Source of the DNA: Actinomycetes bacterium
Lineage (GTDB): Bacteria > Actinomycetota > Coriobacteriia > Anaerosomatales > Anaerosomataceae
NCBI GenBank assembly: GCA_021372825.1
Contig: JAJFTR010000071.1
Span: 1 to 64,000, forward strand
Reading direction: 5' to 3'
Length of the DNA: 64,000 nucleotides
Made by a program: the position numbers and the translations under genes. The notes below the pieces were generated by a model, which was given only the letters and a program-made list of their open reading frames with translations, searched no databases and was not told the DNA's origin. Positions 51,451 through 58,798 of this stretch are shown piece by piece; within the stretch, counting starts at the first letter, position 1, and every line of letters begins with the position of its first letter.

Positions 51451-51526
51451 CGCCTTATCGCGCGAAGCGGGAGCGGAGGCCGGTCGCGTGAAGGCGGCCG
51501 GCCTCGCTGTGAGTGAAGGAGTCGAC

Positions 51527-52228
51527 ATGCCGCGAGTCTCACGCGTCATCGGTCGCGAGGTCGTCTCGTCAAGAGGACAGGTGCTAGGGAGGGTCTCGGA
51601 GGTGCTCTTCGCCGCGTCGGAGCCAGTCGCGATCGGGCTTGCCGTCGAGCGTCCCCGCGTGGCTGGCGTCGTCGGTGTGGCACCACGCTACATCCCTCTG
51701 ACCTCCGTTTCATTCGACGAGGGCAAGGTGCTTCTCGACGCTGCGAAGGCGCCGTCGCTCGCCGCGTCCGAGAAGACGATCGGCATGGCGTGGGACGCGA
51801 CGGTGCAGTGGCGTGGAATGCCGGTTGTCGGTTCTGACGGGGAACGTGTCGGCACCATCGTCGACATCGAGTTCGAGCGACCGGGTGGGCGGGTGCTTTC
51901 ACTCGTGCTCTCCTCGGGAATGATCGCTGATGCCGCCATCGGAAGGATGACGGTCCCCGGCCAAGTGATCACAGGCTACCGTGACGATGCGGTGCGGATC
52001 ACGACCACCTATGGAGAGCTCACAGCCTCCGGAGGTGCGGCGAAGTCGCTCGCCGCCGGGGTCGCCGTTGCAAAAGAGCATGGCGGCAAGGTGGCAAAGC
52101 AGGCGTATGACACCGGGATGTCAGCGGCGATCTCCGTGGGGCGGTCGTTCAAACGCGGTAAGGCGAAGCGTGCTGTCGACGGACTGCGTAAGATAGTGAG
52201 CGACGCCATGAAGGACGACGACGAGTAA
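51527..52228 (+). CDS. PRC-barrel domain protein
   Basis: 233 residues. Two PRC-barrel-like units are visible: VIGREVVSSRGQVLGRVSEV (about 5-75) and WRGMPVVGSDGERVGTIVDI (about 85-160). A helical basic C terminus (RSFKRGKAKRAVDGLRKIV) follows. PRC barrels bind protein or RNA partners or act as membrane-associated adaptors. AAGGAG lies five bases before ATG 51527. It shares the PRC unit with the MgtE-like protein at 56452, though no link is shown. Confidence 0.8.
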   Translation: MPRVSRVIGREVVSSRGQVLGRVSEVLFAASEPVAIGLAVERPRVAGVVGVAPRYIPLTSVSFDEGKVLLDAAKAPSLAASEKTIGMAWDATVQWRGMPVVGSDGERVGTIVDIEFERPGGRVLSLVLSSGMIADAAIGRMTVPGQVITGYRDDAVRITTTYGELTASGGAAKSLAAGVAVAKEHGGKVAKQAYDTGMSAAISVGRSFKRGKAKRAVDGLRKIVSDAMKDDDE

Positions 52229-55190: not shown

Positions 55191-56450
55191 TCAACCGATC
55201 CCGAGCAGGGTCATCGCAAGGAGCGCGACGGTGAGCGAGATCACGACCACGATCGTTGCCCACGCCAGGGTGTTGTCGACACGGTTGTTGGCGTAGCGGC
55301 CCATGATGCGCCGGTCGTTGATGATGACCATCATGAAGATGAGGATGAACGGCAGTAGGACGCCGTTCACGACCTGTGAGATCAGCATGATGCTGATGAG
55401 GTTCAACCCGGGAAGCAGGATGAATGCCGCTCCAACGAACATCACGAAGGTGTAGATGCCGTTGAAGGCCGGTGCTTCTGCCCATGAGCGGTCGAGACCG
55501 GCCTCGAAGCCGAAGGCTTCGCAGATGGCGTAGCTCGCGGTGAGCGGGAGGACGGCTGCCGCAAGCACGGAGGCCGACAACAACCCGATGGCGAAGAGAA
55601 GCTCGGCATAGGGTCCTGCGAGCGGTGCGAGGGCGCGCGCGGCCTCTCCTGCACTCGTGACCTCGATCCCCGCCGGATGCAGCACGGTCGCAGTGGTGAT
55701 GATGATGAAGCATGCGATCACGTTCGCAGTGATGGCGCCTACGATCACATCCCACCGCGCGAGTCTCCACTCCTTGATGGACGTCCCTTTGTCCACGATG
55801 TTGCTCTGCACGAGGAACTGCATCCAGGGCGCGATCGTCGTGCCCGTGAGACCGATCGCAAGGGCGACGAAGGCCTGGGTGGGGACGATCCGTGGTACAA
55901 CGAAGCTTCTTGCCACGACTCCCCAGTCCGGGCGTGCGAGGAATGCCGCCACGACGTAGGTCACGAACACCGAGGAGAGTGCAAGCAGGGTCTTCTCGAC
56001 ATTGCGGTAGGAGCCCCGGATCACGAGTAGCCACACACTGATGGCGGCGATCGGCACGGAGACGTACTTCGAGACCCCGAAGAGTTCCATGGCGGCGGCG
56101 ATGCCAGCGAATTCGGCCACGGTGGTGGCCGCGTTGCTGGTGAGCAGCAGCATCATGGCGACGAAGGTAGGGCGGACACCAAAGCGTTCGCGGATGAGGG
56201 CAGCGAAGCCCTTGCCGGTGACCGCCCCCATGCGGCCCGCCATCTCCTGCACTATTGCGAACGACGGTGTCATGGCCAGCATCATCCACAACATCGTGTA
56301 GCCATATCGAGCACCCGCGGCAGAATACGTGGAGATCCCACCAGAATCGTTGCCAGCCGACGCGGCGATGATCCCGGGGCCGATGACTCCGAGAAGGGCG
56401 AAGAGGCCCGTCTTCTTGCGCTTGTCGGTCTGGCTAGGCACGTGCGCCAC
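55191..56450 (-). CDS. Nramp-related transporter with altered metal site, probable Mg2+ transporter (NRMT type)
   Basis: About 419 residues and eleven helices of the SLC11/Nramp fold, starting GVIGPGIIAASAGNDSGGIS. In TM1 the usual DPGN reads DSGG (Asp35 kept, Asn to Gly). In TM6 the usual MPH reads APW (TGTTIAPWMQ; Met to Ala at 207, His to Trp). The missing Met is the residue that selects transition metals over Ca2+/Mg2+ in classical Nramp proteins, and its loss is a feature of Nramp-related magnesium transporters known from Eggerthella. The gene begins at once after the MgtE-like stop and lies in its M-box operon. GTG at 56450 or 56441 could start; the latter has AGGGTGG five bases upstream. 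Confidence 0.88.
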   Translation of the reverse strand: MAHVPSQTDKRKKTGLFALLGVIGPGIIAASAGNDSGGISTYSAAGARYGYTMLWMMLAMTPSFAIVQEMAGRMGAVTGKGFAALIRERFGVRPTFVAMMLLLTSNAATTVAEFAGIAAAMELFGVSKYVSVPIAAISVWLLVIRGSYRNVEKTLLALSSVFVTYVVAAFLARPDWGVVARSFVVPRIVPTQAFVALAIGLTGTTIAPWMQFLVQSNIVDKGTSIKEWRLARWDVIVGAITANVIACFIIITTATVLHPAGIEVTSAGEAARALAPLAGPYAELLFAIGLLSASVLAAAVLPLTASYAICEAFGFEAGLDRSWAEAPAFNGIYTFVMFVGAAFILLPGLNLISIMLISQVVNGVLLPFILIFMMVIINDRRIMGRYANNRVDNTLAWATIVVVISLTVALLAMTLLGIG

Positions 56451-56451
56451 C

Positions 56452-58302
56452 CTATGCGAAGACCCGTGAGTCGACGACCACAGGCGTGAGGACGGCGAAG
56501 AACGCGACCACACCGATCACGATGAGGACGGCGGTGACCGCCATCTGCGGACTGCGCTTGCCGTCACGAGCGCGAGCCTCGGCAGCAACACCGAGCAGCG
56601 TGCCGGAAAGCGTCACCACGAGCGCCGCTACTCCCAGCGCGATGCCGACCCATGCCTGGTAAGGCAGGGAAGACGCGCGGAAAAGCGCCGCCACCAGCGG
56701 CGGCGTGCCGCCCCACACCTCTAGGACCGCGAACGCGGTGACACCGATAGCCCCGCCGAGAACAGCGCCGGCAAGTCCGTCGTTGATGAGCCGGCGAGCG
56801 ACGGGCGTCCGCGCTTCGCCGGTCTGAGATTCGATCACGCGCGACAGCGTGTGCGCGGCGACATCCTCTGCCAGACGCATGATCACTGCGGCCACGAGAA
56901 GACCGAGGAAGATCGGCTCCGCGAGGTGAGGGTAGGCGCGAGCGATGGCCGCCGCCGTCAGAAAGAGCGCTCCCCACACCGCGAGCCATCCGTTGCGAGA
57001 GACCCACTGCCAGATGCCGGTCACGTCCAGTCCGGAGCGGCGTCCTGTTGCGAGCTCAAGGTCCTCGGCCGACTCCTCCTCCATGACCTCAAGCGCGTCG
57101 TCGACGGTGACCATGCCCAGGATGTGGCCCGTCTCATCGACGACGGGAAGCGCCAGCAGGTCGTACTTGCTCATCATCTCGGCGACCGCTTCCTGGTCGT
57201 CGTCGGGGCCGACAGTGAAAAGCTCGCGTTCGGCGATCTCGGACACGGGTGTATCGGCAGGCGAGACGATGAGGTCCCTGAGCGAGATCACACCGGTCAG
57301 CGTGCCGTCGTCATCGGTGACGTAGATGTAGTAGATGCTCTCGTTGCTGGCGGCGCCCGCGCGAAGGTGCTCGATCACCTCGCCGACCGTCATCTCCTCG
57401 GTCACCGTGGTGACCTCCGGCGTCATGATGCCGCCCGCGGTCTTCTCGCGATAGCCGAGAAGGGAGCGGATCGCTCGCGCCTCGCGCACCCCCATCAGCC
57501 GCAGCAGAGTCTCGGCCTTGTCATACGGCAGGTCGCCGATGATGTCGGCTGCGTCGTCGGGGTCCATCTCTTCGAGGATGTCCGAGGCGCGCTGGTCTCC
57601 GAGGTCATCGATCACGTCGGCCTGCAACTCGTCTTCGAGCTCCGAGATCGCCTCCGCGGCCTGCGCGTTGTCGAGGTGCTCGAAGACCTTCGCGCGCTGC
57701 GACGGGCCAAGCTGCTCGAGGACGTCCGCCACATCTGCGGGGTGGAGCTCGTGTAGGCGCTTATGAGTGACCGAGAGCTTCACTTGCGACAAGTCGCGGT
57801 CGAGGAGGTCCATATAGTTCCACGCGATGAGGTTCTCGGGAAGCTCGTGCCCGAAGAGCTTAGCGATCCGGTTGGCGGCGCGTTCAAGCCCGGGATGCAG
57901 CCCTCGCAAGATCCCGCGGATGCCTACCTCGGCGCCGAGGAGGCGCAACTGGTTGCGGGACTCTGAAAGCTTGAGGTCGTTGACGCGCACGACCTTCATG
58001 CCTTGTGTGTCCACGATCTGCTTGTTGAGGAGGTCACGCGCAAGGAGGATCTCGTCGGGCTGCAGGTAACTGAATCGCAGCTCAGAGCGCGGCGCGTTGA
58101 GCGTCACCTGGTCGTCGTCGATGCGCGCCACGTACTTGCGCCACGACAGCATGAACGGCGTCTTGTCAGGGCCGAGGAACGCCAGAGATGTGACGCGCGG
58201 GAACACCTCGCGCGTGGTGATAGCGACGTCGTGGATGGTGCCGATGGTCTCGCCGGTGGCGTCCACCACCGGCTTGCCCAGCATGCGGGTCAAGTAGAAC
58301 AC
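56452..58302 (-). CDS. PRC-barrel/MgtE_N/CBS protein with degenerate MgtE-like membrane domain
   Basis: 616 residues. PRC barrel at about 1-70 and a second PRC-like unit at 85-135, MgtE_N helical domain at 185-285 (HELHPADVADVLEQLGP; MDPDDAADIIGDLP), two CBS domains at 293-410, and four or five helices from 438. The helices follow the MgtE membrane pattern, but the pore motif (P-x-x-M-x-x-GGN-x-G-x-Q) is replaced by IMRLAEDVAAHTL near 475-487. The domains that sense Mg2+ in MgtE are therefore kept and the pore is not. It probably gates or senses for the Nramp-like protein encoded next. GTG at 58302 follows GGGAGGGAG; upstream frames are riboswitch leader. Confidence 0.88.
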   Translation of the reverse strand: MFYLTRMLGKPVVDATGETIGTIHDVAITTREVFPRVTSLAFLGPDKTPFMLSWRKYVARIDDDQVTLNAPRSELRFSYLQPDEILLARDLLNKQIVDTQGMKVVRVNDLKLSESRNQLRLLGAEVGIRGILRGLHPGLERAANRIAKLFGHELPENLIAWNYMDLLDRDLSQVKLSVTHKRLHELHPADVADVLEQLGPSQRAKVFEHLDNAQAAEAISELEDELQADVIDDLGDQRASDILEEMDPDDAADIIGDLPYDKAETLLRLMGVREARAIRSLLGYREKTAGGIMTPEVTTVTEEMTVGEVIEHLRAGAASNESIYYIYVTDDDGTLTGVISLRDLIVSPADTPVSEIAERELFTVGPDDDQEAVAEMMSKYDLLALPVVDETGHILGMVTVDDALEVMEEESAEDLELATGRRSGLDVTGIWQWVSRNGWLAVWGALFLTAAAIARAYPHLAEPIFLGLLVAAVIMRLAEDVAAHTLSRVIESQTGEARTPVARRLINDGLAGAVLGGAIGVTAFAVLEVWGGTPPLVAALFRASSLPYQAWVGIALGVAALVVTLSGTLLGVAAEARARDGKRSPQMAVTAVLIVIGVVAFFAVLTPVVVDSRVFA

Positions 58303-58443
58303 GCTGCTCCCTCCCTTCGAACCAAGGCTCGAAAGGCCTTCTTGGGGGTCCCGCGCACCCGAGGAAGGTCGGGAGCCGGGACCTACGGACTGTGGGGAAT
58401 CACGGAGGTCCTTTTCAACGGCAACAGGTCGGGCAACAAGAAA

Positions 58444-58470
58444 ACCCCTCGTCCGCGAGGGAGGAGGGGT
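58444..58470 (-). terminator. Intrinsic terminator of the M-box leader
   Basis: Read on the minus strand: ACCCCTC, an inner region that itself pairs CCTC/GAGG, then GAGGGGT and a T-rich run TTTTCTTG. It lies between the M-box and the coding start, as expected for a Mg2+-induced transcription stop. Confidence 0.85.
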
Positions 58471-58534
58471 CTCAAGCGGCAAGTGTGCGCCACCGCTCGC
58501 GCTGTCAGGACACGCATGCCCCGACCGCCCCTTC

Positions 58535-58745
58535 CCTCGTCATCGGTTTGAGCACTGTCCGACGTAGGGAGCGCGATCGCGTGCTTATCGCGCGGCGGAG
58601 TGGCCGCCCACCGTGTCCCAGCCACGTTAGCCTTCGCCTTAAGCCGGCGAGGGCTGTTCTACCCATTGGCGTCTCTCGACATTTCCGGGCAGTGGCCTGT
58701 GTTCGAACAGGAGCCGCACCTAACGGAACGGAGCCTTACTCGTTG
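58535..58745 (-). ncRNA. M-box (ykoK) magnesium riboswitch
   Basis: Read on the minus strand the M-box core is plain: GTTAGGTGCGGCTCC (58724-58710), then CCACTGCCCGGAAAT, GTCGAGAGACGCCAA (58680-58666) and TGGGT-AGAACAG, closing with GGACAGTGCTCAAACC near 58560-58545. These match the Bacillus M-box segments in order and spacing; the variable P2/P3 hairpins differ as they should. High Mg2+ folds the aptamer and exposes the terminator at 58470-58444. The downstream genes are the PRC/MgtE_N/CBS protein and the Nramp-like transporter, so they belong to the magnesium regulon. Confidence 0.93.
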
Positions 58746-58769
58746 TCAACGCCCCGAGGGGCACCGCTG

Positions 58770-58798
58770 ATTGTAGCCTCCGAGCAGCGCGTATGCAA
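58770..58798 (-). promoter_or_regulatory. Promoter of the M-box operon
   Basis: On the minus strand TTGCAT (58798-58793) and TACAAT (58775-58770) are 17 bases apart. Transcription would begin near 58763, about 20 bases before the aptamer. It sits in the gap after the HAD gene, which shows that the riboswitch operon is independent of that gene. Confidence 0.75.

What the first reader, a model, noticed from the sequence alone, without database searches (positions are those of the whole stretch)
55191..58798. Mg2+-riboswitch operon pairing an MgtE-like sensor without pore motif with an Nramp-related transporter
The sequence shows a promoter, an M-box, a terminator, then a PRC/MgtE_N/CBS protein whose membrane domain lacks the MgtE pore motif, then an Nramp protein with DSGG in place of DPGN and APW in place of MPH. 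M-box control is known for Mg2+ uptake genes and the Met-less Nramp form is known for NRMT proteins. The inference is a two-component Mg2+ uptake system in which the soluble Mg2+-sensing part of MgtE is reused to gate a different transporter.
Basis: partly seen in the sequence, partly recalled or inferred. Interest (0 to 1): 0.88.

Follow-up and report, generated by a model that had tools for sequence, protein, structure and literature searches.

The report
Dead magnesium channel paired with transporter
A magnesium-controlled operon pairs a real magnesium transporter with a relative of a magnesium channel that kept its magnesium sensor but lost its pore, most likely turning a retired channel into a feedback brake for an unrelated transporter; the basic pairing was reported in 2014, but the retained pore-less membrane part and a natural fusion of the same sensor to a third kind of magnesium pump appear to be new.

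Summary
On the minus strand lie an M-box (126.7 bits; Rfam cut-off 44), an intrinsic terminator, a PRC/MgtE_N/CBS protein with a multi-helix membrane tail, and an Nramp-family protein that groups with the solved Mg2+ transporter EleNRMT (100/100 support) and has its site motifs. Only the promoter is unsupported.

The M-box, MgtE-domain and NrmT arrangement, and the guess that the MgtE-like protein gives feedback, were published in 2014 (PMC4072509). New here, as far as the literature held shows: (1) in 75 Actinomycetota sensors the tail is a full-length MgtE membrane domain (profile alignment E 2e-11) with the GGN motif and the TM5 Asp absent in all 75. (2) The plug-helix residues that couple Mg2+ sensing to that domain (E255/E258/D259) are invariant wherever it is present, as in true MgtE, and decay where it is lost. 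(3) Selection is inverted: sensor conserved, membrane domain relaxed but still purifying. (4) In two genomes the same sensor is fused to an MgtA Mg2+ pump. (5) True MgtE and NRMT rarely co-occur in the class.

Best reading: a pseudo-channel that passes the cytosolic Mg2+ signal to NRMT as an allosteric brake. Contact and gating are inferred, not shown.

The parts
58526..58734 (-). M-box (ykoK-type) Mg2+ riboswitch aptamer
   Evidence: RF00380, 126.7 bits, E 5e-28, full length; the only M-box in the own genome
58436..58462 (-). intrinsic terminator (expression platform), stem 58462-58445 plus T-rich tail
   Evidence: also a stable hairpin in the predicted fold
56452..58302 (-). pseudo-MgtE sensor protein, 616 aa: PRC barrel, MgtE_N, CBS pair, plug helix, pore-less membrane domain
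   Evidence: Pfam, solved-structure matches to MgtE, predicted structure whose best fold matches are full-length MgtE 5x9h and 2zy9 over about 441 columns
58081..58302 (-). PRC-barrel domain (residues 1-74)
   Evidence: PF05239 E 2.7e-14
57445..57747 (-). MgtE intracellular N domain (residues 186-286)
   Evidence: PF03448 E 4e-29; the only MgtE_N match in the own genome
57079..57435 (-). CBS domain pair (about residues 290-408)
   Evidence: PF00571, two stretches
57046..57105 (-). plug-helix equivalent (residues 400-419) with the counterparts of MgtE E255, E258 and D259
   Evidence: alignment to 2yvx; conservation counts; one continuous helix 400-419 in the model
56455..57045 (-). degenerate MgtE membrane domain (residues 420-616), 4-5 predicted membrane helices, GGN motif and TM5 Asp absent
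   Evidence: hhalign to true MgtE membrane domain E 2.1e-11 over 177 columns; alignment; column counts
55191..56441 (-). NRMT, Nramp-related Mg2+ transporter, 416 aa (an in-frame GTG at 56450 is an alternative start)
   Evidence: EleNRMT 7qia 472.7 bits against about 120 for DraMntH; NRMT clade 100/100; motifs NDSGG and GTTIAPW

Best explanation
A doubly Mg2+-controlled uptake operon. When Mg2+ is low the M-box leaves the terminator unformed and the operon is transcribed (inferred from the family; established for other M-boxes). NRMT then imports Mg2+ (inferred from clade and site residues). The upstream protein is a retired MgtE channel: its N, CBS and plug parts still bind Mg2+ when the cytosol is replete, and the resulting plug movement acts on its pore-less membrane domain. 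That domain, probably with the PRC barrel, contacts NRMT and shuts or slows it. Shown here: the parts, their homology, loss of pore residues, retention of Mg2+-site and plug residues, conserved linkage, and fusion of the same sensor to an MgtA Mg2+ pump. Inferred: Mg2+ binding, physical contact with NRMT, and the sign (inhibitory) of the effect.
For: (a) Conserved linkage: of 80 NRMT loci from many phyla, 72 carry the sensor next to it (one of them only partly on the contig, one downstream), 3 are cut by contig ends and 5 truly lack it. In 77 of 78 further loci of the class the sensor was found beside NRMT, and the remaining one (G104) has it just downstream with the M-box still first. (b) The M-box lies 132-350 nt upstream of the sensor in 47 genomes. 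(c) MgtE carboxylates D91, D92, D214, E216, D247, E255, E258, D259 are kept in 74-75 of 75 long sensors, as in 18 of 18 (17 of 18 for E258) true MgtE. E258 and D259, at the plug-membrane boundary, are invariant in every form with a membrane domain (75 here plus 17 in other Actinomycetota), absent from the fusions, and decayed in forms with one helix or no tail. (d) Pore loss: GGN 0 of 75, TM5 Asp 0 of 75, also in 18 sensors from other Actinomycetota. (e) Constraint is inverted: at 70-80% CBS identity the membrane domain is 66% identical in MgtE but 34% in sensors, while the N domain goes from 65% to 81%. (f) Two genomes of different families fuse PRC-MgtE_N-CBS (63-64% identical to the window sensor) to a magnesium P-type ATPase, TIGR01524 1077 and 1099 bits against a cut-off of 610.75. 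(g) True MgtE and NRMT rarely co-occur in the class: 3 of 20 MgtE genomes have NRMT, against 159 of 180 others.
Against: No interaction, binding or transport data. In PMC4072509 co-expressing the MgtE-like fragment with the A. capsulatum NrmT did not change rescue, and that transporter preferred Mn2+. Tail-less and one-helix sensors work without the membrane domain, so that domain cannot be essential to a general NRMT-sensor mechanism. Several Actinomycetota keep the long sensor away from NRMT. Five sampled NRMTs have no nearby sensor. The membrane domain evolves fast, so partial decay is possible. The co-occurrence test is not corrected for shared ancestry.
Confidence: 0.6

Rival explanations
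1. The sensor's membrane domain is still a transporter or channel, with a remodelled pore (TM2 consensus L-R-x-A-[E/D]-[E/D] in place of GGN), so the operon encodes two Mg2+ or cation pathways.
For: Five-helix layout and length are preserved; plug residues that gate the pore in MgtE are invariant; an acidic pair recurs in TM2 in most of the 75 long sensors.
Against: GGN and the TM5 Asp, invariant or nearly so in true MgtE, are absent from all 75. The membrane domain is the least conserved part. It is reduced to one helix in Eggerthellaceae and absent elsewhere while NRMT linkage persists.
Confidence: 0.15
2. The sensor does not touch NRMT; it is a Mg2+ buffer, chaperone or general signalling protein that merely shares the Mg2+ regulon.
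For: Soluble PRC-MgtE_N-CBS proteins occur in Actinomycetota without an adjacent NRMT; long forms occur next to a carboxypeptidase gene; PMC4072509 itself named chaperone activity as an alternative.
Against: Adjacency across many phyla and in both gene orders; direct fusion to another Mg2+ importer type; a membrane-anchored tail kept or reduced to one helix rather than simply lost in Coriobacteriia.
Confidence: 0.2
3. The transporter moves Mn2+ or another metal and the sensor responds to that metal.
For: In PMC4072509 the NrmT of A. capsulatum, which has an adjacent MgtE-like gene, rescued manganese deficiency better than magnesium deficiency.
Against: That transporter had no M-box, whereas this operon has a strong one. 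The window transporter groups with EleNRMT and carries its site residues.
Confidence: 0.05

Closest known systems
M-box / MgtE-N-domain / NrmT operons of Shin et al. 2014 (PMC4072509)
   Same: Mg2+ riboswitch, MgtE-like gene and Nramp-related Mg2+ transporter in one operon; adjacency noted for most of the group; cytoplasmic feedback proposed there.
   Different: [quoted passage not shown] Here it has an added PRC barrel and the complete membrane domain with the pore residues lost. The MgtA fusion is not mentioned in the passages read.
MgtE Mg2+ channel (2yvx, 2zy9, 5x9h)
   Same: N domain, CBS pair, plug helix and five-helix membrane domain in the same order; Mg2+-site carboxylates and plug residues.
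   Different: Pore residues GGN and TM5 Asp gone; PRC barrel added; membrane domain under weaker constraint than the sensor; scores below the NCBIfam mgtE cut-off (218.2 against 232.75).
EleNRMT, Eggerthella lenta Mg2+ transporter (7qia, PMC8806188)
   Same: Same clade, near-identical site motifs (NDAGG/NDSGG, GTTIAPW), same kind of neighbour in Eggerthella sinensis (L038).
   Different: Sensors in that family carry only one predicted membrane helix, and no M-box was found upstream there.
MgtA-type magnesium P-type ATPase
   Same: Receives the same PRC-MgtE_N-CBS sensor as an N-terminal fusion in two Actinomycetota genomes.
   Different: Unrelated transporter family; not in this operon.

Membership tests
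M-box riboswitch (RF00380) | Full-length match to the covariance model above the curated score, followed by a regulatory element before a Mg2+ transport gene | tested here: met
   126.7 bits against 44, positions 1-169; terminator downstream
NRMT (Nramp-related Mg2+ transporter) | Falls in the NRMT clade, apart from MntH-type Nramp | tested here: met
   NRMT rows incl. EleNRMT and the window are one clade, 100/100
NRMT (Nramp-related Mg2+ transporter) | Site residues: Asn to Gly in TM1, Ala to Thr and Met to Ala in TM6 (substitutions named in PMC8806188) | tested here: met
   NDSGG and GTTIAPW
NRMT (Nramp-related Mg2+ transporter) | Mg2+ transport | not testable with these tools
   needs an uptake or rescue assay
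MgtE Mg2+ channel | MgtE_N plus CBS pair with Mg2+-binding carboxylates and plug helix | tested here: met
   D250 is Glu in the window copy
MgtE Mg2+ channel | Membrane domain homologous to MgtE | tested here: met
   hhalign E 2.1e-11; several relatives exceed the PF01769 cut-off; the window copy alone does not
MgtE Mg2+ channel | Pore residues: GGN motif in TM2 and Asp in TM5 | tested here: not met
   0 of 75 long sensors for both, against 17-18 of 18 true MgtE
Two-component, sensor-gated Mg2+ uptake system | Physical, Mg2+-dependent control of NRMT by the sensor | not testable with these tools
   only indirect support: linkage, fusion to MgtA, conserved plug residues

The most novel reading that the evidence does not exclude
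A whole ion channel has been converted, by loss of its pore but not of its gate, into a Mg2+-driven regulatory subunit for an unrelated transporter, and the same sensor is a portable module that evolution attaches to at least two unrelated Mg2+ importers: NRMT (as an operon partner) and MgtA (as a fusion).
Probability: 0.5. Interest if true: 0.72.

Novelty: new variant of a known kind. Interest (0 to 1): 0.55.

Why it matters
The role of the MgtE-like partner of NrmT was left open in 2014. The data here turn that question into a concrete test: a Mg2+ gate without a pore, with invariant plug residues to change, next to a transporter family with a solved structure. If right, it shows how a channel can lose conduction yet survive as an allosteric control part, and it suggests a shared Mg2+-sensing module across three unrelated Mg2+ importers (MgtE, NRMT, MgtA).

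Tried and rejected
Origin of the single-helix tail of Eggerthellaceae sensors (which MgtE helix it came from): profile comparison inconclusive, E 0.01-0.04. Idea that non-NRMT-adjacent long sensors (L228-L238) are intact ancestral PRC-MgtE channels: rejected, GGN and TM5 Asp are missing there too. Idea that those sensors pair with another transporter: the conserved downstream gene is a D-Ala-D-Ala carboxypeptidase. Very long open frames in some high-GC genomes (L246, L247, L249) as further fusions: in L246, whose sequence was read, the extra length lies upstream of the start and looks like spurious open frame; L247 and L249 show the same layout but were not read. Sigma-70 promoter scan: nothing at threshold. 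A sensor-NRMT complex model and a coevolution test were not possible or not meaningful here (no complex prediction; about 150 pairs, many close relatives). The L228 row is an artefact (neighbouring open frame picked); its true tail is. Pairs with divergent tails are partly misaligned, so only the close pairs were used.
Full report
1. Observation. The locus reads on the minus strand. An M-box lies at 58734-58526, 126.7 bits against a curated 44. A terminator-like hairpin with a T-rich tail follows at 58462-58445. The first gene runs 58302-56452 (616 aa), the second 56441-55191 (416 aa; an in-frame GTG at 56450 is an alternative start), about 10 nt or less apart. No promoter passes the scan, so that part of the finding is unsupported.

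2. Transporter. Pfam gives Nramp. The best solved relative is EleNRMT (7qia) at 472.7 bits; MntH-type entries reach about 120. A tree with MntH-like proteins from the same class places the window copy in the NRMT clade with 100/100 support. TM1 NDSGG and TM6 GTTIAPW match the EleNRMT site and the substitutions discussed in PMC8806188.

3. Sensor. PRC barrel, MgtE_N and a CBS pair are clear. The protein aligns to the MgtE chain 2yvx. The NCBIfam mgtE model aligns from residue 172 to 609, through the tail, but scores 218.2, under its cut-off of 232.75. The tail is homologous to the MgtE membrane domain: hhalign of 75 long tails against 18 true MgtE tails from the same class gives E 2.1e-11 over 177 columns. 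In a screen of 200 genomes the Pfam MgtE membrane model hits about 20 frames of sensor length weakly, many of them directly beside NRMT and a few above the cut-off. The predicted structure (mean pLDDT 78, pTM 0.42) finds full-length MgtE (5x9h, 2zy9) first, over about 441 columns; TM-scores are low (0.23-0.32), so the match supports domain order and fold per domain, not the overall arrangement.

4. A pore that is gone, a gate that is kept. GGN is absent from all 75 long sensors and the TM5 Asp from all 75, whereas both are invariant or nearly so in true MgtE. The same holds for 18 sensors from other Actinomycetota. In contrast the Mg2+-site carboxylates (assignments from PMC5882242, for E59, D91, D95, D226, D247, D250; the role of the others is from general knowledge of MgtE) are largely kept. 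E255, E258 and D259 in the plug helix are 75 of 75 in long sensors, decay in one-helix forms (E258 in 9 of 36) and are nearly gone in tail-less forms and gone in the MgtA fusions. A vestigial membrane tail would not be expected to hold its coupling residues invariant, so the tail probably still receives the plug signal.

5. Selection. In close pairs the N domain has omega about 0.01-0.1 and the tail about 0.09-0.5. At 70-80% CBS identity the membrane domain is 66% identical among true MgtE but 34% among sensors, and the N domain moves the other way (65% to 81%). The tail is under weaker, not absent, constraint.

6. Linkage. Of 80 NRMT loci of many phyla, 72 carry the sensor next to NRMT, 3 are undecided because the contig ends, and 5 lack it (L039, L052, L059, L071, L072); three of those five have an M-box directly before NRMT. 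L080 and G104 have the reverse gene order, and in G104 the M-box still comes first. In 47 genomes of the class the M-box lies 132-350 nt before the sensor on the same strand. This 80-locus sample is the most window-like part of a larger set, so the fraction is not a family-wide estimate.

7. Forms and history. Sensor tails come as long (mostly 4-5 helices; Coriobacteriia outside Eggerthellaceae, and other Actinomycetota), one-helix (mainly Eggerthellaceae) and none (Firmicutes, Deltaproteobacteria, Acidobacteria and others). In a tree of the N-CBS part all sensors fall on one side of true MgtE (SH-aLRT 99); tail-less forms and the Coriobacteriia forms are separate groups. Whether the membrane domain was kept from an MgtE ancestor or regained is not settled.

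8. A sensor that moves. Two genomes of different families (G381, G419) encode a 1317-aa protein in which PRC-MgtE_N-CBS, 63-64% identical to the window sensor, is fused to a magnesium P-type ATPase. They are the only two among 31 genomes of that class. This is independent evidence that the module acts on Mg2+ importers of unrelated fold. No M-box was found upstream of the fusions in the stretch fetched.

9. Exclusion. Among 200 genomes of the class, 20 have a true MgtE by the membrane model and 3 of these also have NRMT; 159 of the other 180 have NRMT (Fisher p about 1e-11, not corrected for shared ancestry). The own genome has no MgtE_N gene other than the sensor and one CorA. In one family (f20) the M-box stands near true MgtE instead.

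10. Known work. PMC4072509 described M-box/MgtE-fragment/NrmT operons, showed that NrmT alone supplies Mg2+, noted the MgtE-like neighbour, and suggested feedback control or chaperoning. It described the neighbour as homologous to the cytoplasmic domain. No held paper joins MgtE with PRC-barrel, and only two join NrmT with MgtE; the library lacks most subscription journals, so novelty is stated with that limit.

11. Verdict. Real, well-supported operon of a known kind, with a new variant of its least understood part. The brake mechanism is the best-supported account but rests on inference.

Noticed in passing
L226 (G381:C77) and L227 (G419:C8): PRC-MgtE_N-CBS sensor fused in one 1317-aa reading frame to an MgtA-type magnesium P-type ATPase.
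   Followed up: yes
L217-L221 (Eggerthellaceae, second Nramp-family gene): Nramp-family paralogues with GPGT in place of DPGN and TIVPY in TM6, so without the metal-binding Asp; they fall outside the NRMT clade.
   Followed up: partly
L030 3442-3546(-), L043 3445-3547(-), L045 3447-3551(-): Rfam PyrR binding-site hits just above threshold, on the opposite strand immediately upstream of the sensor gene in three deltaproteobacterial loci; could be a different structured leader.
   Followed up: no
L228-L238: In several Actinomycetota the pore-less MgtE sensor is not next to NRMT; in the eight loci tested the next gene is a D-Ala-D-Ala carboxypeptidase.
   Followed up: partly
L010, L018, L019, L023, L038, L057, L067 just upstream of the sensor: In Eggerthellaceae and neighbours a tRNA gene sits shortly upstream of the sensor, where other Coriobacteriia have the M-box.
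   Followed up: no
G006:C1, G030:C102, G036:C72: M-box close to a true MgtE gene in one family of the class, as an internal contrast to the NRMT operons.
   Followed up: no
window 51488-52228 (+): Another PRC-barrel protein with two PRC stretches a few genes away from the operon.
   Followed up: no
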